A model generated the notes under the pieces. It ran no database searches. It saw only the letters and a program-made list of their open reading frames with translations, and was not told where the DNA came from. From Planctomycetota bacterium (GTDB lineage: Bacteria; Planctomycetota; Phycisphaerae; Sedimentisphaerales; Anaerohalosphaeraceae): DNA of 64,000 bases. The translations under genes and the position numbers were made by a program. The DNA is taken from contig VRUI01000015.1 in assembly GCA_019456225.1 (NCBI GenBank), forward strand, positions 1 through 64,000. Direction: 5' to 3'. Of this stretch, positions 410 through 32,123 are shown one piece after another. How positions within the stretch are numbered: position 1 is the stretch's first letter; every line of letters begins with the position of its first letter.

Positions 410-1528
410 CTAAGAATCCAGATCGACTCTAGTGTCGCAGGCTATTACCGCAAAGTCCTGAGAATTGAACTTTGCTTTCGTGAATCCGTAAATACTGGAA
501 ACTTCGACACCAAACTGGCTTTCGTACTCAAACATCTTTTCCTTCCAGCCGATCTTTCGACCGTATGCAAGGATCCCTGCCTGTGCGCCGCAGAACAAAC
601 CACGGCAGGCAGAAATGCCGGAAGCGAGTGGATCGCCAGATTCAAAGATTTCCGGAGCGGTAGAACCACCGGCACCAGTACGAAGCTGAATCTTTTCGTA
701 CTCATGGACGATAACACCATCCCACATTCCGGCTGCTCCACTGAAGAGCGGATTAGACTCACCGCGGACATTAGCGTCCTTTTGAGCATTGATCCACTTA
801 TCTTCAAAACGAAGAGCCTTGATCTGCCAGGGGCTTGCGAAGTACACATAAAACTTCTTGCCCTTGATGACTATCGGCCGGATCTTGCCATAAGAAGCGC
901 CGCCGTCAACCTGCGCCATTCGCTTAAGGTGCGAAAGAACCGAAGTGCCGAACAGATGAATACCGGCGGTATCGTCGATAAGCGCATCAGTCGCCACAGT
1001 CGCAAGACCGGTACTGTCGGTCTTTTGACCGCCGATAAACCTGCGTGCAGAAGTCGGCAAAGCAGCGGCAACAGTGCCAACCGCATTAGCCAGACCGGAA
1101 AGACCGAGAACAATATCGGTATCCCGGATTTCAGCATGCCACGCGCCCAAAGCTTCTTTTGCTTCGCCGCGAAGTTTAATCTTCGTACGTCTTTCCGTCA
1201 TCTCACCGTCGATCCGAACGGCCTGCTTGCGCTTATGGATAGTCGTATCGCAGTTGTGGAAGGTCAGAGCAACCTCGGACCCTTCAATCGCAGCATCGTT
1301 AATCTTACCATCATCAATAAGCCGTGCGCGCAAAGGCGTATGAATCTGATCACCTTTGTTTTTCGTCAGGTCAGCATTGACCTGGATGATGCTGTTGCTG
1401 TCAGAGCCAACAAAGCGACCATCATTGAAAAACGCGTCCTTTTCGGCCTGGCGATAGGTTTTCTCACCCCAGACCTCTTCGACGGACGCAGAATGTGCTC
1501 CGCCTCTAACAAAAACTGTGTTAGCCAT
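410..1528 (-). CDS. N4-gp56-type major capsid protein
   Basis: The 372-aa product is the likely shell-forming head protein. The stretch from about residue 85 to 150, with IDDGKINDAAIEGSEVALTF, then paired KRKQAVRID and RTKIKLRGEAKEALGAW segments, resembles the N4-gp56/phage-capsid-3 family, and the length fits. The ATG at 1528 follows an AGAGG site. The gene sits after terminase, portal and scaffold genes on the same strand, which is the classical head-module order. The family call is by eye; the capsid role is strongly supported by order. Confidence 0.8.
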   Translation of the reverse strand: MANTVFVRGGAHSASVEEVWGEKTYRQAEKDAFFNDGRFVGSDSNSIIQVNADLTKNKGDQIHTPLRARLIDDGKINDAAIEGSEVALTFHNCDTTIHKRKQAVRIDGEMTERRTKIKLRGEAKEALGAWHAEIRDTDIVLGLSGLANAVGTVAAALPTSARRFIGGQKTDSTGLATVATDALIDDTAGIHLFGTSVLSHLKRMAQVDGGASYGKIRPIVIKGKKFYVYFASPWQIKALRFEDKWINAQKDANVRGESNPLFSGAAGMWDGVIVHEYEKIQLRTGAGGSTAPEIFESGDPLASGISACRGLFCGAQAGILAYGRKIGWKEKMFEYESQFGVEVSSIYGFTKAKFNSQDFAVIACDTRVDLDS

Positions 1529-1552
1529 AATAATACCTCTTTAGTTGTGGCC

Positions 1553-2194
1553 CTAATCCAGAGACGCGGCAAGCTTGTCGAGCTCTTCTTCGCTCATTTC
1601 GCTTACACTGTCGGCATTTGCAGTAGTTGCAACACCTCCAGTTCCCGGAACACGGCCGTTTAATTTAATGTTTTCAAGCAGTTTTGATGTTCTCACAGCT
1701 TCGGATTTTTCAGAGAGTTCGGGCGTATTAAATATACACCGCCGATACTTCTCAGATGCAGGGTCTTTCGACTGCCGGATCGCCAGCTTATCGCCTTCAG
1801 AGAGATTGCCTCCGCCCGCTGCGATGACCGAATCAAAATCCAGCCCTTCGCCATGAGTCTCAGCTGTCATCTTCTGTTTAGCGATTGCAGAGGTTTCCGC
1901 TTCTAATGCGGCAAACACCGCATTTGCGTCAGTCTCTTTTTGCTCAGCCAGCATAGACTTAAACTGGCCAACAGTCATAGGAGCATCTTCGCCATCGATA
2001 GAGCCTTCATTTTTCCCTGAAGGAGGGTCTTGAGTTTGCTTGGCCTTTAGCTCGGCAAGCTCAGTTTCGATGGTCTGACGCTTCTTAACTTCGGCCTGCT
2101 TATCGCAAAGAAGTCCTTTAAACTGCTCTTCGCTGTACGTCTTTTCAACTGTTTTTACATCGTCACTGCTTACTTTTTCTTCTGTTTCATTCAT
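1553..2194 (-). CDS. Phage capsid scaffolding protein
   Basis: I chose the ATG at 2194 (MNETEEKV) because AAAGGTG lies 7 bases upstream; the frame is open 75 bases further but that part is unlike the rest. The 213-aa product is highly charged and coiled-coil-like. It has a Lys/Glu/Gln-rich N-terminal half (KQAEVKKRQTIETELAELKA), a central helical part, and an acidic C-terminus ending EMSEEELDKLAASLD. Such a protein between portal and major capsid is typical of a scaffold that is released or degraded during head maturation. No protease domain is visible. Confidence 0.7.
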   Translation of the reverse strand: MNETEEKVSSDDVKTVEKTYSEEQFKGLLCDKQAEVKKRQTIETELAELKAKQTQDPPSGKNEGSIDGEDAPMTVGQFKSMLAEQKETDANAVFAALEAETSAIAKQKMTAETHGEGLDFDSVIAAGGGNLSEGDKLAIRQSKDPASEKYRRCIFNTPELSEKSEAVRTSKLLENIKLNGRVPGTGGVATTANADSVSEMSEEELDKLAASLD

Positions 2195-2302
2195 GTTTTT
2201 ACACCTTTGTATAATCAGGCAAAGTACCTGGACCCGGCACTTTTCCCTGCCGGTATGGGGTTTGAGCAATCACTCAAAACGACACAATTAACCTACATAT
2301 AT

Positions 2303-2332
2303 ATTTTTTACGCCATAAAATATTTTGCAAGC
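2303..2332 (-). repeat. 30-bp element, copy A, upstream of scaffold-capsid unit
   Basis: A perfect copy of this 30-mer occurs at 6866-6895. On the minus strand it reads GCTTGCAAAATATTTTATGG and continues CGTAAAAAAT. It contains the palindrome AAAATATTTT and lies 109 bp upstream of the scaffold ATG; the other copy is 119 bp upstream of the small terminase ATG. Equal placement before two minus-strand transcription units suggests a shared late promoter or operator. Confidence 0.7.
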
Positions 2333-2394
2333 CGGTATTGAAATTATTTGAATCTAGAAGTTTCGCATGAATTTGAAAAGCTTGCAGAAAATAA

Positions 2395-2423
2395 TTGACT
2401 TTAGCTTAGACTTCTGATATTTT
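2395..2423 (+). promoter_or_regulatory. Sigma70-type promoter for the 2473 cargo gene
   Basis: TTGACT (2395-2400) is followed after exactly 17 bases by TATTTT (2418-2423). The gene start lies 50 bases downstream with a strong AAAGGAG site at 2461-2467. This gives the cargo gene its own promoter, opposite to the surrounding phage genes. Confidence 0.6.
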
Positions 2424-2472
2424 ACTATTTTGGATTTTACACATTAACATTTAGGATAATAAAGGAGATGGT

Positions 2473-3093
2473 ATGTTCTATGCTGGTTACACTGAATATG
2501 GCTTTCAAAAAACACTTGAGAATATCAGTGATTCTGGGATTGATTTGGAACGTCCGTATTTTGCCCTATTACTCTTTCGAGAAATTGATGACAATCTAAT
2601 TTCTTATTTAACTGAGAATTGGGAAAAATTGAACCACTCAACTGGTGAATGTATTCATTTACTAGGGCCTATACGACCAACTGGTGGTAAATTTTCAGCA
2701 GACTCACCGCTCTTTCCGACTGTAGAAAGGGAACCAGAAGGGAATGAATTTAAAAATAAGCTATCCAAAGCGGGTGTCGACCTTGCAACCCTCCCTATGG
2801 TTATTTTCTTCAAGATAATATCAAACGAGGAGCATGATATCAGTGTTGCAATAATTAAATCGCTTCCACTAGGTAAATATGAGTCAAATGAACAATCAAT
2901 TAAATCATACGGGGATTTATTTTCCACGATAATAAATGTTGCAAATTCTTCATTTTATACAAATGCTTCGGATATTGATTTTGTTAATGAATTGAAACGA
3001 AAAATCTTGTTTGACAGCATTAAAGACGCCTTAACTGTTGAAATTGCTATTAAGGTACTTAAGGTTCTGTATAAAATTTTCAAGCCAGGTTAA
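2473..3093 (+). CDS. Unknown prophage cargo (moron) protein
   Basis: The 206-aa product has no family I recognise. It lacks a signal peptide and membrane segments. It shows alternating strands and helices: FALLLFREIDD near residue 35, then VDLATLPMVIFFKII around residue 105. That TLP followed by a hydrophobic strand resembles the cis-proline region of thioredoxin folds, but no CxxC is present. The gene is clearly AT-rich, runs opposite to the head genes, interrupts the portal-scaffold order, and carries its own promoter and a downstream hairpin. This is the usual layout of an independently expressed lysogeny gene, for example in superinfection exclusion or defence. Function is not known. Confidence 0.8.
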   Translation: MFYAGYTEYGFQKTLENISDSGIDLERPYFALLLFREIDDNLISYLTENWEKLNHSTGECIHLLGPIRPTGGKFSADSPLFPTVEREPEGNEFKNKLSKAGVDLATLPMVIFFKIISNEEHDISVAIIKSLPLGKYESNEQSIKSYGDLFSTIINVANSSFYTNASDIDFVNELKRKILFDSIKDALTVEIAIKVLKVLYKIFKPG

Positions 3094-3094
3094 C

Positions 3095-3128
3095 TGGTTA
3101 GATGTGTTGAAGCTTCACCTTCTAACCA
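3095..3128. terminator. Inverted repeat between convergent cargo and portal genes
   Basis: GGTTAGA (3096-3102) pairs with TCTAACC (3121-3127), and the inner part contains the palindrome TGAAGCTTCA. It starts two bases after the cargo gene stop and lies 11 bases before the portal stop. There is no clear U-run, so it is only a possible bidirectional terminator. Confidence 0.45.
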
Positions 3129-3138
3129 AATATACAAT

Positions 3139-4866
3139 CTACGGTAAGCTTGACTGTATTTTTGAGTATGTAGTCTTTCCTTGAACATTACCTGTCGTTT
3201 CCACCGGCACAATCTTATCAATAATACTCTCCTTGTTCGCAATATCACTGTTTTCAATGACCGCTTCAGGCGGTATGCGATCCGGGAACAGCTTGGCAAT
3301 CTCCATAATAGACATAAAGTTTGCATACCTTGCAGTCGGCGAGCTTGAAGAAGATTCGATTTTAATACCGTATTTGCCGACCTTACGGCTTTTCAGCAAG
3401 CTAAGATCAGCATCCATATTCTTTTCAGATACGATATTGCGAATCTCTTCATCGCTGTAAACATCGGTATGCCGTACCATATCGACAAGTCCAAGCGTGA
3501 TCAGCTTTTGCGTCCTGGAGAAATTATCGAACAGCACTTCAACAACCTTCATACCCTGAGCCTGCCGAAGCTCGATAGCTTTACCGGACTCGTTTTCGTT
3601 ACGTATCACCTGCCCCAGCAGGTCAGGGTTAGCTCCAGAGATTTCCTTCATATCGTCACCGCTCATCATAGCAGCGGTAATATGCCCTTGAGACAAGGGG
3701 ACTGGCTCGATACGCTCGATCTCACCGCCCGCCTTGGATTTATCCAGCACAACTCCCGCAGCAGAACCAAACTTAGCCAGATGTATGTCATAGTTACCAA
3801 GCACCTTCTTAACTATAAATCCGCTGTTAGCCGTCTGATTAAGGTTGTGCAGTGCCTGCGACCGACGTTTATTTAGTTCCTGCTGCGGACCGATCAGATT
3901 TTGAGACACGCCCATAACATACCCATCCACCCAAAACGGGCAAAAGCGGTAATAAGGGAAATTAGTCACTCCGCTGTAAGGATCAACAATATCTTCCAGT
4001 ACAATATTGCCAGCGGTCACGGTCTTATTAAGCACAGGGACAACCCATTCCTTTAAATGCCACATACTGCTTTTTGCAGCGATAGCCGCCGCAACCTCAG
4101 CATTTTCAGGAGCAATCGTCCTTATATCCCCGGTAGCCGCATTGATAAGCACAAGCCTCTTTTCATGCTGTTTCCACCAGCACTCACGCAGACGCCATCT
4201 ATAAATACCTCTGTCAGGATCACCGACCACATCACCGGACGCAGGATCAATATCCAGTCCGCCTTTTTCAATATCGGCCTGCCTTAACGGATAATTCAAA
4301 AGAATAGATTTCTTATCCATCCAGTAATCACGAATCACAAACTTACCCGAACGGTTAAGATCGTATTCCTTAGCATCCGGGTCTTCACGCATATCAAACG
4401 GCGATACTTTGGAAACCTCAATATCTCCATATATCGGATCAGTCTCATAATTGATACCAAGCCCAAGCCAGCCTTTATTTCCAATAACACCGTCCAAAAA
4501 GCAGTCGGCAATCTCAAAATCAGCGTCTGTAACATCCAAACAATGCCGCATCGTCTCCGTAAAAACAGCAGCCAACTTCTTAAGGCCACCCTTACGCGCA
4601 ACAACAGTTATATCCTGCCTTCCCTGCCTCTGTATACCGGAAAGCAGGTTAATAATCGGCAGTATCAGGTTGATTGTCAAATGAGGACGCTTTTCAGCAT
4701 TAAGTTTAGCAATGTCAGCAGCATCCCATTGATCGCCTGTGTAAAACGCAAATCCCTTAGCCATCCGGTTCCGCTCATCGCGCAGACCCTCATCGCTATG
4801 CTTCCAGTATTCGCTAACCATATTTAATTTGATTATTTCACTCACAACTTTACTCCGTAATTTCAC
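3139..4866 (-). CDS. Phage portal protein, P22-like
   Basis: The 575-aa product would form the dodecameric portal at the capsid vertex through which DNA is packaged and ejected. The N-terminal part (FAFYTGDQWDAADIAKLNAEKRPHLTIN), the following region on a single template (ILPIINLLSGIQRQGRQDI) and the central DPYSGVTNFPYYRFCPFWVDGYVMG segment fit P22-type portals, though it is shorter than P22 portal (about 725 aa). The start is the GTG at 4866, whose first bases overlap the terminase stop; an ATG at codon 16 is an alternative. It directly follows the terminase genes. Confidence 0.85.
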   Translation of the reverse strand: MKLRSKVVSEIIKLNMVSEYWKHSDEGLRDERNRMAKGFAFYTGDQWDAADIAKLNAEKRPHLTINLILPIINLLSGIQRQGRQDITVVARKGGLKKLAAVFTETMRHCLDVTDADFEIADCFLDGVIGNKGWLGLGINYETDPIYGDIEVSKVSPFDMREDPDAKEYDLNRSGKFVIRDYWMDKKSILLNYPLRQADIEKGGLDIDPASGDVVGDPDRGIYRWRLRECWWKQHEKRLVLINAATGDIRTIAPENAEVAAAIAAKSSMWHLKEWVVPVLNKTVTAGNIVLEDIVDPYSGVTNFPYYRFCPFWVDGYVMGVSQNLIGPQQELNKRRSQALHNLNQTANSGFIVKKVLGNYDIHLAKFGSAAGVVLDKSKAGGEIERIEPVPLSQGHITAAMMSGDDMKEISGANPDLLGQVIRNENESGKAIELRQAQGMKVVEVLFDNFSRTQKLITLGLVDMVRHTDVYSDEEIRNIVSEKNMDADLSLLKSRKVGKYGIKIESSSSSPTARYANFMSIMEIAKLFPDRIPPEAVIENSDIANKESIIDKIVPVETTGNVQGKTTYSKIQSSLP

Positions 4867-6281
4867 ATAGCCATCGCCGAATAACTGCTCGAGTAAATAT
4901 CATCATCGTCATCAAATCCGTTTGAATAAGTACCACGCCCGCCAATCAATTCGCCTTCTACATACTGTAGTGCATAAAGCCCATTCACGTACGCATCACC
5001 TCTATCCGGGCTGTTGCCGAGGCGTTTTTTAATATCAGCCTTGCTTTCAATGATTATCTTACCGTTACGGAACTCATATTTAGGGCTGCAGAGCTGACCG
5101 ACAAGTCTTGGTTCTGTATTCTTAAGCTCAACATCCCCGGCAGCGATCATATCAGCGGCCTCGCACCAGACTTCGGCCCGCTTATTGTAATACTTGTGAG
5201 ATTCCTCTGCTTTGCTGGCATTGTCTATGCCAATGACGTTATCGCCCATTTCAATAAGCCGGTCGACAACACCCGCTCCAATCCCACACACATCGACAGC
5301 GATAAGGCAACCGCCGTGTTTGTGTGAAAGAGTATGTAGTATATTAGCAGTGTACATAAGGTCTTTTTGCCCATAGATTACGGCCTCCTTAATTTCAGTA
5401 TTTTCCATGTAATAGATAACCGTCTCGTCGTTACCGTACCGAGCCGGATCGCACGTTATAATTTTCTTTTTAACAGGCGGATACAGTGTAATATTAGCAG
5501 CATTGGAAACCCACGAATCCCGTATAACCTGATTAAACCCGCCAAGACAATCCCATGATCCTTCCAAATATGCCTTAAGCAGTTCAGGTCTATTCTTAAA
5601 TGAATCCCTAAGTACTTCTATGTATTCAGGTCCAAGATAATGATTATCAGTAGGTAACGCCTGAACGAACAGCCGGTTAGCAGTAGGATTAAGTATAAAC
5701 TCATCTTTCAGAAACGATGGAGCAGGGTTAGCAGTGAAAAGCCCCTTACCCGGTATCTTCGTCCCGTTGATGATCAGCCGAAAGGTTGCCCGAAGCTCGC
5801 CGATCTGTGTCGAATCCACTTCCTCTGCCTGGTCAATAAAGAAGAACGCATACTCAGCAGAGTTAAACTTGTTAATAACATCGCCGTTATCCAGCCCGCC
5901 TGTAAGTATCTTAACCCGGTTGGATATAATGATCTCAGCAGGTTTGCCTTTGATCTCATACATATCCTCAGGTATAAACCGTTTCCAAGTCTCAAGAGTC
6001 GTATTCGTAAAGTCAATACCCCGTTTCCTGCCCATGAAGCCAACAGGTATAGGGTGCTGTCTCGGTTCAATACCGCACTGCTTAATGATCGCAAGAGCCT
6101 TAGTAAAACTCCATATACACCCAAACACAGATTTACCCCCACCCTTGGCACCGCCATAGAGCACTTCTTTAATATCAGCATGCTTAAGTGCATCCCAGGC
6201 AGTAGTCTGCTTGGCAGTAAGCTTAGGTATGAACCTGCGTACTTTAGGATTATCATCCGATACTGGCAGCCTATTCACCAA
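4863..6281 (-). CDS. terL: Terminase large subunit
   Basis: The 472-aa packaging motor cuts concatemeric DNA and drives it through the portal using ATP. The ATPase domain shows Walker A GGAKGGGKS near residue 45 and a Walker B/acidic segment FFFIDQAEEVD near residue 150. The C-terminal nuclease domain has ITCDPARYGNDE, IAVDVCGIGAG and SPDRGDAYVNG, supplying the metal-binding aspartates. The start is TTG at 6281 or, better spaced to the GAGG site, GTG at 6278. It overlaps the small terminase gene by 11 bases and the portal gene by a few, so the three are co-translated. Confidence 0.92.
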   Translation of the reverse strand: MVNRLPVSDDNPKVRRFIPKLTAKQTTAWDALKHADIKEVLYGGAKGGGKSVFGCIWSFTKALAIIKQCGIEPRQHPIPVGFMGRKRGIDFTNTTLETWKRFIPEDMYEIKGKPAEIIISNRVKILTGGLDNGDVINKFNSAEYAFFFIDQAEEVDSTQIGELRATFRLIINGTKIPGKGLFTANPAPSFLKDEFILNPTANRLFVQALPTDNHYLGPEYIEVLRDSFKNRPELLKAYLEGSWDCLGGFNQVIRDSWVSNAANITLYPPVKKKIITCDPARYGNDETVIYYMENTEIKEAVIYGQKDLMYTANILHTLSHKHGGCLIAVDVCGIGAGVVDRLIEMGDNVIGIDNASKAEESHKYYNKRAEVWCEAADMIAAGDVELKNTEPRLVGQLCSPKYEFRNGKIIIESKADIKKRLGNSPDRGDAYVNGLYALQYVEGELIGGRGTYSNGFDDDDDIYSSSYSAMAM

Positions 6282-6747
6282 TCACCTCTTCAATTTCGTC
6301 CTGTTCAGGTTTGGGAGCTTCACCATCCGGAGTCTCATACGTCTTCATGATGATAACCTCAAACGGCAGTCCATCCTTGCCGTTGACGCCATAGTTCTCG
6401 GTACTCTTACCCTCAGCCAGCTGCACACGATGGGCATACTCCTTAGCGATCCGGCTAACCCTGTCAATAGCACCAGAAGCTTTTTCGCTGTCAGACCCGA
6501 TATCCTCAAGATAGTCCAGCACGATCTTATCAGCCAGTCCTCGAACCCGGCGTATACGAGTATCATGCTTTTCCTCGCGTATCTTCTTAACATCCTCATA
6601 CTTCTCAGGAAGCCGCTTCATACTGGCATAGACGTAAGACTCACTCTTTTTGAGCTGCTTGGCAATATCCGCAACATTATCCCCGTTGCCATACCGGGCG
6701 TATATCCACTCAAGCTCATAGTCCATGTCATTCTTTTCAGTACTCAT
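6271..6747 (-). CDS. terS: Terminase small subunit
   Basis: The 158-aa protein likely recognises phage DNA and loads the large subunit. Residues 8-55 form a helix-turn-helix region (ARYGNGDNVADIAKQLKKSESYVYASMKRL), as in small terminases. A basic helical stretch follows (REEKHDTRIRRVRGLADKI), then a coiled region and an acidic tail EEVIGE. The ATG at 6747 has AAGGAA upstream. It is the first gene of the terminase-portal unit, 119 bp below the 30-bp repeat copy B. Confidence 0.8.
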   Translation of the reverse strand: MSTEKNDMDYELEWIYARYGNGDNVADIAKQLKKSESYVYASMKRLPEKYEDVKKIREEKHDTRIRRVRGLADKIVLDYLEDIGSDSEKASGAIDRVSRIAKEYAHRVQLAEGKSTENYGVNGKDGLPFEVIIMKTYETPDGEAPKPEQDEIEEVIGE

Positions 6748-6865: not shown

Positions 6866-6895
6866 ATTTTTTACGCCATAAAATATTTTGCAAGC
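6866..6895 (-). repeat. 30-bp element, copy B, upstream of terminase-portal unit
   Basis: It is identical over 30 bases to 2303-2332. Its position relative to the first minus-strand ATG (119 bp) nearly matches that of copy A (109 bp). It also lies 15 bases from the -35 of the divergent lipoprotein gene, so it could affect both directions. Confidence 0.7.
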
Positions 6896-6938: not shown

Positions 6939-7015
6939 TATTGGTGTCGTAAAGAGAGAATATGCCTTTTAGCCGTTTAAAGGGGAAATATCAGTTATTA
7001 CGAAAGGAAGAAATT

Positions 7016-7597
7016 ATGAGAAACTATCTATGCAGTACACTTGCGGGAATATTCTTTTTAACAGGATGCGCCAGCCGTCAAGCCCAGTCTCTTGCAGATT
7101 CGGCTGATGAATGGGGAGAAGGCAAGCAGCAGCAAGACGGCAGCACAGTCTACAAACGCACCTTCGAGGTTCCTGCAAGCCATTGGAAGCCGAATGATGT
7201 CACGAACTACTTCGCGGATCTCGAATATACCAAACTGCACATTGCCGAAGCCAACGGCGGCAAGTATATGCACGTGCTGCTCTCTGCTGAAGACACCTCA
7301 GAATGGGATATTAAAAACGAGGCACGAAGGGAGATGACCGTCAGGCGTGATGACAAGAAGCGAATAAGCCAAATGAGCTTGTCACTGGGCAACTTCCACT
7401 ACATCGATCTGGACGGTGATGGTAAGCTTGACCTGTTCTTTGATCACGTCAGTCACCAATCGTTCATCATGACCAAAGACAAATTGCTGCGTGTTGCCCC
7501 AAAACGGACCAAAGATCAGGATGTCCAGGTTTCTCTTGAGGGCAAAGTGGCTTTCAAGTTTCAGAATGGGGAATGGGTACAGCAAGGGACTCGCTAA
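7016..7597 (+). CDS. Prophage-encoded lipoprotein of unknown function
   Basis: I chose ATG 7016 because AAAGGAAG precedes it and because MRNYLCSTLAGIFFLTGC is a classical lipoprotein signal with lipobox LTGC; cleavage would leave Cys18 lipidated. The remaining 175 residues are hydrophilic. They include a DLDGDGKLDLFFDH segment that resembles an EF-hand-like or FG-GAP-like calcium loop. It stands opposite to the phage structural genes and has its own promoter. Lysogenic-conversion lipoproteins often block superinfection or change the host surface, but nothing in the sequence proves that role. Confidence 0.8.
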   Translation: MRNYLCSTLAGIFFLTGCASRQAQSLADSADEWGEGKQQQDGSTVYKRTFEVPASHWKPNDVTNYFADLEYTKLHIAEANGGKYMHVLLSAEDTSEWDIKNEARREMTVRRDDKKRISQMSLSLGNFHYIDLDGDGKLDLFFDHVSHQSFIMTKDKLLRVAPKRTKDQDVQVSLEGKVAFKFQNGEWVQQGTR

Positions 7598-7659
7598 CAA
7601 CACCATAGGATAACTAAAAGTTTCAGCCGCCTTTTCAATAATCAATCGTGTCACACCCC

Positions 7660-8720
7660 ACCGCTCGCCCGCCCCTGACGGGCCGACCTTCACTAGTCAT
7701 TAGCTCGTCTCCGTTCGCTCCGGCCTTGCGGCCGTTTCGCTCTCTGCGCTCGATGACGTCGTTCTTTATTCCCTCAAACGCACCGCTTGCCAGCCCGAAG
7801 GGCTACCAAGCTAGCCCATCCGAGACGCCCGGCGAACAAGCCGCCGAGCTCTCCTACCGCTCGCAGTCGCGTCCAGCCCTGAAGGGCATGGTCGCTCGTG
7901 GCTCGCTAGCCCAATCCATTCCACCGCCCGCTCGTTGGCGGGCTAGTCATCCTACGCGTGGTAGCGCGATGTAGCCTATTCGCATCGCCAGCGTTACAAC
8001 GCCACCGCCTCGGGGCCACAAGGGCCCGCTCGTCGTCGTCGCATGATCGTCGCAGTAAGTTCATTAGTACCGCCATGGTTTGCGTTCGTCCTGAAGTCGC
8101 TCATAGTCGCAGCTGTCGCTTATTCCCAAGACCCTCTTGTTCTCCAAAGTCCTCCCCCTCTAACGGTTTCTCGTAGTTGTACGTCTTAACAATTCCAGGC
8201 ATGGGGCTGCGCGCCCAAAAACCGCTCGGAAAAAGTCAAAAGAAATAAAAAGCAATTTCTTTCTCTTTTCCTCGCCGCCCGCCGCGTTTGACGACCCCCT
8301 TGTTTCGTTAGCGTTACTACGGCGGGCGAAAAACAAAAGACCTACCGCAGGAACCGCTTACGCGGCACCTGCTATTCTTCTCTGTTAGATTATGTCGCGC
8401 AAAGTCGTTAAGGTTAGGGCGTTGGCTTCTTCTCTTGTTCCAACGTACTCTTATTCTAAAGTCTGCCATGGATTCCCTTCGTCCGGGCAAGCCCGCCCGA
8501 TTGGCCTGACGCCCACCGCGGGCAAAGCCCGCGTTAGAGTTGTAGGCCGCCTGCCGGCTGAAAGTAATGGGCAGAAAGCCCCTAAGTACTGGAGGGACAA
8601 GCCCCCCAGCTTTCAAACTAAAAGGAACCTTGCTGCGCTTCGAGCTATCCTGATCTACTTCCGGCAGCAGTTGCTTAACGCAACCCTTTTACAAGCCATT
8701 TAGCACACCAAGTAAGAGAC
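7660..8720 (-). ncRNA. Candidate large structured non-coding RNA
   Basis: No credible gene is present over about 1 kb, yet the minus strand forms many compact hairpins. At 7784-7806 GCUUG/CAAGC encloses AGCCC/GGGCU with a UUCG loop. CGGCC-GCAA-GGCCG lies at 7722-7735. GCAGG...CCGC-GUAA-GCGG...CCUGC lies at 8346-8371. GGG-CUUG-CCC is near 8487, CGCGGGC/GCCCGCG near 8517-8533, GCCCGC/GCGGGC near 7927-7944, and a 9-bp CGCCCGCCG/CGGCGGGCG arm pair spans 8272-8330. UUCG, GNRA and CUUG loops appear in the correct sense only on this strand. Ends are estimated. It could also be a cluster of decayed palindromic repeats. Confidence 0.45.
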
Positions 8721-9213
8721 ACCCTTTAAAATCCCACCTGCTCCATCTCCGACCCCACCGCGATAAATCGCTCCTATGCCTTGAAAAAAAACGGGGACTA
8801 ACTATTTTACATACTGTAGGAACAGGGACGGTTTATCGACCGGGAACAAATCCGGTCTGCACACCTTCAATCCGCAACATACGTTGCTCTACGCTCGACA
8901 AGCTCGACTATTGACCAAACATACGCTTAATTGCAAATACGCTTGTTTTCCCCGTTTTGTTTTCTGCGCCACCCTACGGGCCATTACGCAGGGGTATTTT
9001 AAGGCTGTCAACCACGATGACTTATAAAAAATGTGTAACATCGGGCAAAAGCGTGCCTGAGGAAATGCAGGCACTCGCGTTTGCTATACCGATATTCCAC
9101 ACTGCCGAAAAACAGGGGAAAAACCAATATTATTGCTTTGTCCCCTGGATTCAATCATCCCTCAAAAAACCGACTATCGCAATTTTGTTGATGGACTCAC
9201 AGACAAAAAACAA
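8721..9213. other. Gap without a convincing gene
   Basis: This stretch is less hairpin-rich than its left neighbour. It contains an inverted repeat around CGGTTTATCGACCGG (8830-8844). A 66-codon plus-strand frame at 9017-9217 ends exactly in the terminator below but has no ribosome site. I see no protein family, RNA gene or promoter that I would defend. Confidence 0.5.
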
Positions 9214-9250
9214 CTGACACACGCCGGTTCGTTGTGTCAGCCGTTTTTTT
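9214..9250 (+). terminator. Rho-independent terminator
   Basis: CTGACACA (9214-9221) pairs with TGTGTCAG (9233-9240) around an 11-base loop, and a run of seven T follows within CCGTTTTTTT. It ends plus-strand transcription coming from the left and separates it from the small gene group starting at 9311. Confidence 0.75.
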
Positions 9251-9310: not shown

Positions 9311-9595
9311 ATGGAAGAAAAGAAAGAAATCTCGGAAGAAGTAAAAGCAAAGATCGCAGAGCTAATCGAATTTTGCAAAAAGAACCATTTTGTCGCAGAG
9401 CTTGTCGGCTGTTGGGTTTGGGTTTCGTTCGACGAAAAGCCGGACGAGGACACACGCAAGCTTTTAAAAGGCGTAGGTTTCCGCTGGGTACGCAAACGCA
9501 GCAAATGGGCCCACAACTGCGGACGCCCCTGCAGATCCAGCAAAGGCAACCCGTGGGAAAAATACGAGCATCAGTACGTATCGATAGCCAGTTAA
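9311..9595 (+). CDS. Small phage protein of unknown function
   Basis: The 94-aa product begins MEEKKEISEEVKAKIAELIE. Its core is VGCWVWVSFDEKP followed by LLKGVGFRWVRKRSKWAHNC. This GFRW..KR..W pattern is typical of small mobile-element proteins that I know only as uncharacterised. AAAGGA precedes the ATG. It is the first of four small plus-strand genes that run toward the convergent primase gene. The highly charged, soluble character fits a DNA- or protein-binding early factor. No function can be assigned. Confidence 0.75.
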   Translation: MEEKKEISEEVKAKIAELIEFCKKNHFVAELVGCWVWVSFDEKPDEDTRKLLKGVGFRWVRKRSKWAHNCGRPCRSSKGNPWEKYEHQYVSIAS

Positions 9596-10075: not shown

Positions 10076-10111
10076 TTGCTAATAACTGATCGACTGAAAG
10101 GAGATCAAACC

Positions 10112-10555
10112 ATGCCAAGAACAGACACAATCGAAGAAAGACTCGAAGAAGCAGCCTATAAGGTAACCGACAACTTCTGTTATGGATGTTATGTTGTTGT
10201 CCAGGGCGATCATTGCCCGCACTGCGAAAGCGATGATTTTATGCGGCACATGGAAGGCGTCGGCGTCGAATACGGGACCGACTGGGTAATCGAAGAACTG
10301 ATCCGCCAGCACTGCGAGCCAATCGACACAGAGGAACTCTTCGAGCAGATGCTGGATGACTGTTATGAAGAAATAACACTCGGCTGTTTAAGCTGGTCAC
10401 CGTCCTATGTAATGAAGGAATTGGACCCGACCGCCTATCGCTGCGGAGTAAGCGAGTACATCGACGGCCTTGTCGAAGACGGAGAGTATTACGAATTCGA
10501 CGGCGGCTATTATGATTTCGTCGACATCGAAGAAATGCTCGACAATATAGAGTAA
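10112..10555 (+). CDS. Acidic zinc-ribbon phage protein
   Basis: I chose ATG 10112 because of the strong AAAGGAG site 8 bases upstream; the frame is open 36 bases earlier without a site. The 147-aa product has CYGC near residue 20 and CPHC near residue 35, a probable four-cysteine zinc ribbon. A very acidic C-terminal half follows (TEELFEQMLDDCYEEI and DGLVEDGEYYEFDGGYYDF). The strong negative charge recalls DNA-mimic anti-restriction proteins. That is only an analogy, because I do not recognise the family. Confidence 0.75.
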   Translation: MPRTDTIEERLEEAAYKVTDNFCYGCYVVVQGDHCPHCESDDFMRHMEGVGVEYGTDWVIEELIRQHCEPIDTEELFEQMLDDCYEEITLGCLSWSPSYVMKELDPTAYRCGVSEYIDGLVEDGEYYEFDGGYYDFVDIEEMLDNIE

Positions 10556-18422: not shown

Positions 18423-19544
18423 CTAATTCAGTTTAAAAATCGGACCAAAGATGCTTTGTGCTAATTCCGATGCTTCATTTATAGAAACAATAAAAGCCCT
18501 ATCATGTCCAGTCAACCAGCTAAGAGCTGTATCCTCTGTGCTAAAAAAGTGAATATTACAGCAGAAACAACCCCTGACATTCCCCTTTAAATGGGAAACC
18601 TTCGGTGTGACCAGAGAGATAAAAGTAGTATCAGGCTCGCATTCTTTGATTCCACCAGACGTAACGGTGAAACTTATATTGTCCTGGCTGACTGGGCACC
18701 GGGACTTAACAAGGGCATGTTTATGCAAAATGTGCGGAATGAACAAAGTATCGAAGGCGCACCAAGTGTAAAGTGTTTCCTCTTCGATTATCAAGATGTG
18801 TGGTGTTGGTTTCAAGGTCAACCCGCCGAATGCAACAACCTTGCCTTCTTCATCATATTCGATGGCTGAAATAGCCCACTTTTCAAGTATCTTTTTAGTA
18901 CACGCCACAGTGATATTCGAAAGTGAGGCCACGTTTTCAAGCAGCACAGGCTTTCCGCAGGCAAGCTGGCGATACAACTGAATGCAAACCTGCCGGGTCT
19001 GCGGATTAACCTTGAGTGCTTTTGAAAGTGTTCTTCTAAAATCTCCTATTTGCCGAATGTCCTTTTTGCCAATAGGCATGTCTTTGCCGAATTTGGCGTA
19101 TGTCTTTCCAGTCGCTTTTTGAGCACTACTTTCGCAGTTGTCTTCCTGTGCTTCGAGAAAATCGAGAATGGGACACTCGCTTGTTGGGCCAGCCCCCTGG
19201 CATAATTTGGTTAGTTTTACAAGAGCAAGCTTCATCTTTTGCAAAGTCGCAATTTTATACTCAATATCAGCAACCTTTATTCTGGCTTGAGCCTTAACCA
19301 TATCGCAAGTCGTATCAGGGTCAACCCTGAGCGAAAGGAGCTCTGAAATTTCTTTTAGAGAGAATCCCAATTTTTTGGCTCGCTTAATGAAACAAATACG
19401 AGAAATTGCCTCATGGCAATACTGACGATACCCGGAATCGCTCCGGGGTGGTTTGAGGATAAGTCCCCTTCGTTCGTAATAACGGATAGTCTCAACGTTC
19501 AGTTGTGTTCGCTTAGCAATTTGTCCTATAGTCAAATTTTCCAT
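18423..19544 (-). CDS. merB: MerR-MerB fusion: mercury sensor fused to organomercurial lyase
   Basis: The 373-aa protein joins two families. Residues 1-130 are a MerR regulator: HTH LTIGQIAKRTQLNVETIRYY and the three Hg(II)-binding cysteines C80, C115 and C124 with MerR spacing. Residues 190-370 are an alkylmercury lyase: LYTWCAFDTL supplies C262 and D265, and GCFCCNIHFF supplies C328, matching the C96/D99/C159 catalytic set of MerB. All key residues are present in both halves. ATG 19544 has GAGG upstream; an upstream GTG at 19571 is less likely. It would cleave C-Hg bonds and sense the released Hg(II). No merA is visible nearby. Confidence 0.88.
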   Translation of the reverse strand: MENLTIGQIAKRTQLNVETIRYYERRGLILKPPRSDSGYRQYCHEAISRICFIKRAKKLGFSLKEISELLSLRVDPDTTCDMVKAQARIKVADIEYKIATLQKMKLALVKLTKLCQGAGPTSECPILDFLEAQEDNCESSAQKATGKTYAKFGKDMPIGKKDIRQIGDFRRTLSKALKVNPQTRQVCIQLYRQLACGKPVLLENVASLSNITVACTKKILEKWAISAIEYDEEGKVVAFGGLTLKPTPHILIIEEETLYTWCAFDTLFIPHILHKHALVKSRCPVSQDNISFTVTSGGIKECEPDTTFISLVTPKVSHLKGNVRGCFCCNIHFFSTEDTALSWLTGHDRAFIVSINEASELAQSIFGPIFKLN

Positions 19545-19566
19545 TTTTGTTGCCTCTATATTAAGA

Positions 19567-19593
19567 TACACCCTGTACCTAACTACGGAGTTC
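19567..19593 (-). promoter_or_regulatory. MerR-type operator, copy 1
   Basis: The minus strand has GAAC, then TCCGTAG-TTAG-GTACAGGG, very similar to the copy at 18356-18382. It lies about 25-50 bases upstream of the fusion gene ATG, so the regulator probably controls itself. Confidence 0.65.
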
Positions 19594-31976: not shown

Positions 31977-32123
31977 TTCCACAAATCGGCGTTTCAAAGG
32001 GTTGTTATGTAACAGCCTCATTTACCGGAAGACTCAAAGTTATATTCAAAGTTATACGCCATAAAAAACGCGTCAAATCAAAAAAAGCCGCCATAAACCT
32101 AGTGTTTATAACGACTTACAAAA

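What the first reader, a model, noticed from the sequence alone, without database searches (positions are those of the whole stretch)
7660..8720. Possible new large structured RNA in the prophage
The minus strand of this gene-free kilobase contains at least ten compact hairpins closed by UUCG, GCAA, GUAA and CUUG loops, including a two-tier hairpin with an internal loop at 7784-7806 and a 9-bp pairing that encloses about 40 bases. These loops are in stable orientation only on this strand. Giant phage RNAs such as GOLLD and ROOL occur in comparable places, and nothing I know matches this sequence.
Basis: partly seen in the sequence, partly recalled or inferred. Interest (0 to 1): 0.75.

Follow-up and report, generated by a model that had tools for sequence, protein, structure and literature searches.

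The report
New large mobile-element RNA in Planctomycetota
A gene-free stretch of a prophage in a Planctomycetota bacterium very probably encodes a large folded RNA of a kind not catalogued before; the same fold sits beside the same small gene in other prophages and in a mobile island without virus-particle genes, so it looks like a working RNA carried by mobile elements rather than a chance set of hairpins.

Summary
The finding holds, with corrected boundaries. The minus strand of window ~9200-7655 very probably encodes a large structured RNA. Its conserved core lies outside the reported interval, at 9017-8712; the reported hairpins (8720-7660) form a faster-evolving mosaic 3' tail. Copies occur at other loci of the same genome, in one IMG/VR phage and, by covariance model, in four other genera of the same family. 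All nine core copies with that flank assembled lie beside a divergent small gene (orf9311). In the core, 92 pairs are 95.6% kept, 16 with changes on both sides (shuffles 4.8 +/- 1.7; 0/500). A 10-bp helix spanning ~170 nt is replaced wholesale between copies, and by a different 16-bp helix in another genus. G-U pairs outnumber A-C mismatches 49 to 2, which selects the minus strand. No copy tested matches any Rfam family (GOLLD, ROOL, OLE and the rest). It is not confined to prophages: one copy sits in a ~24.8-kb tRNA-Ser island with integrase, primase and type I R-M but no structural genes. Transcription is not shown. Most likely role: a stand-alone scaffold RNA, GOLLD/ROOL-like in kind; a replication-linked RNA is the main rival.

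The parts
7655..9200 (-). Proposed large RNA as a whole (ends inferred: 5' end after the terminator-like hairpin, 3' end at the last conserved motif GCGAGCGGTGGGGT)
   Evidence: Homologous blocks in other copies; ends not mapped experimentally
9202..9240 (-). Hairpin CTGACACA/TGTGTCAG followed by a T run; a hairpin of different sequence sits at the same place in L023, L145 and L146; terminator-like on the minus strand or operator of orf9311
   Evidence: Sequence
9033..9102 (-). 5' two-tier hairpin domain; AATATCGG/CCGATGTT (9096-9089 with 9044-9037) and GTGCCTG/CAGGCAC (9074-9068 with 9059-9053) change on both sides in other copies
8712..9017 (-). Conserved multibranch core, 92 modelled pairs
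8718..9009 (-). Closing helix P1 of the core (9009-9003 with 8724-8718)
   Evidence: helix 1
8788..8958 (-). Long-range helix P5 (8958-8949 with 8797-8788), replaced wholesale between copies; 16-bp counterpart in G013
8867..8914 (-). Heart of the core: P7 (8914-8910 with 8871-8867) and P10 (8887-8883 with 8878-8874), fully paired in 8 sequences of four genera
   Evidence: models R1 and R2
7655..8640 (-). Variable mosaic 3' tail of hairpin modules; most of the interval first reported
8347..8372 (-). Tail hairpin with GUAA loop, changes on both sides in other copies
   Evidence: helix 1
8277..8327 (-). Tail hairpin with 9-bp stem, changes on both sides in other copies
   Evidence: helix 2
7785..7811 (-).
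   Evidence: Sequence
9311..9595 (+). orf9311, 94 aa, divergent constant neighbour of the core; no significant fold match
10076..10555 (+). orf10076, 159 aa, zinc-ribbon-like, second frequent neighbour
6271..6747 (-). Putative small terminase gene downstream of the RNA in the phage copies (by position before the large terminase)

Best explanation
The locus encodes a large non-coding RNA of mobile genetic elements, about 1.5 kb here. It is read on the minus strand, away from the divergent gene orf9311 (strand shown by pair types; promoter and transcript inferred). The 5' part folds into a conserved multibranch core of about 300 nt (shown by covariation); the 3' part is an exchangeable array of hairpin modules (shown). 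It most likely works (inferred) as a stand-alone structural RNA made when the element is active, a scaffold or assembly platform, perhaps with the protein of orf9311 or orf10076, in a step that P22-like prophages and capsid-less islands share, rather than in building the virion.
For: Covariation well above shuffles and slid controls, also with folds of single sequences; wholesale replacement of P5; G-U 49 versus A-C 2; CM homologs in four other genera, all nine copies with that flank beside orf9311; presence in an island without structural genes; absence upstream of terS in phages with related portal and terminase; no Rfam match.
Against: No transcript, promoter or terminator is shown; the consensus scan found none above chance. 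Only about ten core copies are known, four of them from one genome, all within one bacterial family. The tail is poorly conserved and pieces of it occur alone. orf9311 relatives exist without a detectable core, so the partnership is not obligatory.
Confidence: 0.5

Rival explanations
1. A replication-linked RNA or origin: the transcript primes or regulates replication of the element (in the manner of plasmid origin RNAs), and the DNA doubles as an origin, so it is kept beside replication genes in phages and islands.
For: Core sits next to modules with D5-type primase, a DNA polymerase A-like ORF or primase-helicase plus a replication-initiation-like gene.
Against: The neighbouring replication proteins differ between copies while the core stays; the RNA is far larger than known primers; no direct evidence for an origin.
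Confidence: 0.2
2. A cis-acting leader of the late operon: the RNA lies 5' of terS on the same strand and would let polymerase pass terminators, as put RNA does in phage HK022 (own knowledge).
For: Position and direction upstream of terS in window, L023, L014 and L015; cargo genes lie between RNA and terS.
Against: The G006 island has the core and no late genes; related phages have the late genes without the RNA; an oppositely directed gene lies between RNA and terS in this window.
Confidence: 0.12
3. DNA-level palindromes: dispersed repeats or recombination sites that only look like RNA hairpins.
For: Lone tail fragments in the host genome, mosaic tail, a different neighbour after the 3' end in nearly every copy.
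Against: Helices spanning 170-300 nt covary, G-U pairs are common where A-C mismatches are rare, and the core occurs only beside orf9311 where that flank is assembled.
Confidence: 0.07
4. A diverged member of a known large RNA class (GOLLD, ROOL, OLE, HEARO, raiA, self-splicing introns).
For: Size, setting in a prophage, complex fold.
Against: No match to any of 4227 Rfam families in the window or in eight other loci; domain order opposite to GOLLD.
Confidence: 0.04

Closest known systems
GOLLD RNA
   Same: Large ornate RNA of phages and prophages with one conserved and one variable half; function unknown (PMC12286853)
   Different: GOLLD has a conserved 3' and a variable 5' region and often lies near tRNA islands (PMC12286853); here the 5' core is conserved, the 3' tail varies, and the nearest tRNA in the window is at 32 kb. 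No Rfam match.
ROOL RNA
   Same: Large structured RNA of phages and prophages, function unknown (PMC12286853)
   Different: No Rfam match; not near tRNAs; constant protein-gene neighbour orf9311.
OLE RNA
   Same: Large structured RNA of bacteria that works with proteins (PMC12286853, PMC9723947)
   Different: OLE belongs mainly to extremophilic and Gram-positive bacteria, not to phage modules; no Rfam match here.
ICP1 ~800-nt transcript and PLE IIR transcript
   Same: Abundant non-coding RNAs of a phage and of its satellite (PMC7567579)
   Different: The PLE transcript lies between inverted repeats; no such flanking repeats were found here. Sequence relation not tested.

Membership tests
GOLLD | Match to the Rfam covariance model | tested here: not met
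   no match to any family at gathering score
GOLLD | Conserved 3' region, variable 5' region | tested here: not met
   Conserved 5' core, variable 3' tail
GOLLD | Often near tRNA arrays of phages | tested here: not met
   Only tRNA in the window at 32123; no tRNA in L023
GOLLD / ROOL | Assembles into an RNA-only cage | not testable with these tools
   Needs cryo-EM or native gels
ROOL | Match to the Rfam covariance model | tested here: not met
OLE, HEARO, raiA, group I and II introns | Match to the Rfam covariance models | tested here: not met
PLE IIR-type satellite transcript | Flanking inverted repeats | tested here: not met
   Only two internal inverted repeats between 7600 and 9310
Structured non-coding RNA in general | Compensatory changes in helices beyond chance | tested here: met
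   R-scape itself not available
Structured non-coding RNA in general | Transcript | not testable with these tools
   No expression data

The most novel reading that the evidence does not exclude
A new class of large RNA, unrelated to GOLLD and ROOL, that P22-like prophages and capsid-less, satellite-like islands of Planctomycetota share together with a small partner protein: an RNA-protein machine for a step common to phages and their possible satellites, with a core kept across genera and a tail rebuilt from interchangeable hairpin modules.
Probability: 0.4. Interest if true: 0.85.

Novelty: new variant of a known kind. Interest (0 to 1): 0.68.

Why it matters
Few large structured phage RNAs are known and none has a settled function. 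This one comes with a constant neighbour gene, with a copy in an element that lacks virion genes, and with several diverged copies in one genome. Together these narrow the possible functions (not virion assembly or late-gene control alone) and name concrete partners to test. It also extends such RNAs to mobile elements of Planctomycetota, for which the literature searches here found no description.

Tried and rejected
Rfam at gathering and permissive thresholds: nothing credible. DNA similarity in the phage collection: nothing. Phylum-wide DNA search: outside the genome only three 25-31-nt matches, treated as chance. Exact 18-mer from the core in viral contigs: L023 and one other contig, L113, with only the 18-mer in common and no core match. 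Degenerate core pattern in viral contigs: nothing; in hindsight it excluded some true variants. R1 and R2 on loci with more distant orf9311 or terminase relatives: nothing credible. R2 over 392 genomes of the phylum: nothing outside the family. Attachment repeats for the C47 copy: not convincing. Helix P6 of the alifold model fails in G013 and partly in G006 and is left open (by inspection). Promoter and terminator consensus: none above chance. Fold search of the orf9311 model: no significant match. One protein alignment failed on a stop codon.

Full report
The place. The window is bases 1-64000 of contig C33 of a genome whose terminase relatives lie in Planctomycetota. Positions 410-6747 hold a P22-like late region on the minus strand: capsid PF13252 and portal PF16510, and a large terminase recognised by similarity to annotated terminases; the small terminase is inferred from its position. 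On the other side lie small early genes and a D5-type primase. Between the divergent 94-aa gene orf9311 (9311-9595 +) and terS (6747 -) are about 2.5 kb with one plausible gene, a lipoprotein-like ORF at 6962-7597 (+).

Homologs. blastn found the region again in the same genome at 73-89% identity (C16, C60, C47, C14, C148, C136, with fragments on C83 and at a second place on C60) and in one IMG/VR phage contig, L023. orf9311 occurs seven times in this genome, and several contigs end inside or near the RNA, as expected of a repeat. Shared blocks are about 9310-8708, 8605-7942 and 7750-7655, separated by variable stretches.

Core structure. Five complete 5' copies (window, L023, L018, L017, L019) give a common fold for 9017-8712. 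Counted on the alignment, 92 pairs are 95.6% kept and 16 pairs show changes on both sides, against 4.8 +/- 1.7 in shuffles, 0 of 500 reaching it; sliding the partners by 1-3 columns drops pairing to 40-46%. That fold came from the same alignment, so it was tested again with folds of single sequences: the fold of L023 alone is kept in 86.9% of cells of the other copies with 9 doubly changed pairs, and the fold of the window alone in 86.8% with 11. The clearest case is P5 (8958-8949 with 8797-8788): AAAACGGGGA/TCCCCGTTTT here, TTTCCTGTGG/TCACAGGAAA in the other four.

Strand. Folding energies do not separate the strands. Pair types do: 49 G-U cells against 2 A-C in the core, and 71 against 12 with the structure of L023 alone. 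G-U pairs on one strand are A-C mismatches on the other.

Distant relatives. A covariance model of the core (R1) and one of its heart (R2) found copies in four other genera of the same family: G005:C170, G006:C1, G013:C97 and two in G803. The weaker R1 hits are credible because orf9311 lies beside them in the same divergent layout. In total nine core copies have that flank assembled and all nine show it; the tenth starts at a contig end. P7 and P10 are fully paired in 8 sequences with several alternative pairs. In G013 the place of P5 is taken by a perfect 16-bp helix of unrelated sequence that scores above all 50 shuffles. R2 over 392 genomes of the phylum found nothing outside the family, so the class as detected is narrow.

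Not only prophages. In G006, a one-contig genome, the core sits in an island of about 24.8 kb bounded by a repeat of at least 48 bp from a tRNA-Ser gene. The island has an integrase at that tRNA, a primase-helicase, a replication-initiation-like protein and type I R-M subunits, and no structural genes among the ORFs listed. The C47 copy too has no capsid or terminase gene within the stretch fetched. Conversely, phages with related portal and terminase lack a detectable core, and in three of them the stretch before terS is occupied by other genes. The RNA therefore travels with the orf9311 module rather than with the late genes.

Tail. Positions 8640-7655, most of the interval first reported, are a mosaic in which different copies combine different hairpin modules. 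Two hairpins there show changes on both sides. Two tail pieces also lie alone in the host genome, one 99% identical to L023 over 134 nt. The neighbour after the 3' end differs in nearly every copy. Recombination in the tail is the simplest reading.

Function. Shown: conserved, strand-specific structure, a constant neighbour, and presence in two kinds of element. Inferred: transcription, a stand-alone role, a protein partner. The known comparators GOLLD and ROOL are phage RNAs of unknown function that form RNA cages (PMC12286853); a phage and its satellite are also known to make abundant non-coding transcripts (PMC7567579). No copy tested matches an Rfam family, so it is not filed under any of them. 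That it is a real structured RNA I hold at about 0.93; the scaffold mechanism at about 0.4 to 0.5.

Limits. Independent sequences are few, four of the eight rows in the widest core alignment are from one genome, the models have low effective sequence numbers and rough E-values, R-scape was not available, and no expression data exist here.

Noticed in passing
L148 and L147 (G006:C1 about 3913115-3937960): A ~24.8-kb island in a tRNA-Ser gene with integrase, primase-helicase, type I R-M and the RNA core but no structural genes: a candidate phage satellite or genomic island.
   Followed up: partly
G000 contigs C33, C60, C29, C12 (portal) and C33, C106, C47, C143, C136, C54, C148 (orf9311): One genome carries at least four related P22-like portal genes and seven copies of the orf9311 module.
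   Followed up: partly
window 6962-7597; L014 1686-4658; L015 514-1824: The slot between the RNA and terS holds a different gene in each prophage: lipoprotein-like ORF, PAS histidine kinase, unknown 436-aa protein.
   Followed up: partly
L016 6037-6203; L021 6163-6387: Lone fragments of the RNA tail in host intergenic regions, one 99% identical to the IMG/VR copy over 134 nt, one beside a transposase-like ORF.
   Followed up: partly
L183 607-1557: In G803 the RNA tail abuts an FAD-binding (nadB-like) ORF that appears broken at the junction.
   Followed up: no
L184 about 2226-2013 and 2023-1828: The tail of one G803 copy contains a ~200-nt tandem duplication at 72% identity.
   Followed up: no
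window 6866-6895 and 2303-2332: Exact 30-nt direct repeat upstream of terS and upstream of the scaffold-like ORF, perhaps a regulatory site.
   Followed up: no
window 18423-19571: A single ORF joins a MerR-type regulator to an alkylmercury lyase (MerB) domain.
   Followed up: no
L019 4138-5331: DNA polymerase A-like ORF of 397 aa in the orf9311 module of C136, in place of the D5 primase.
   Followed up: no
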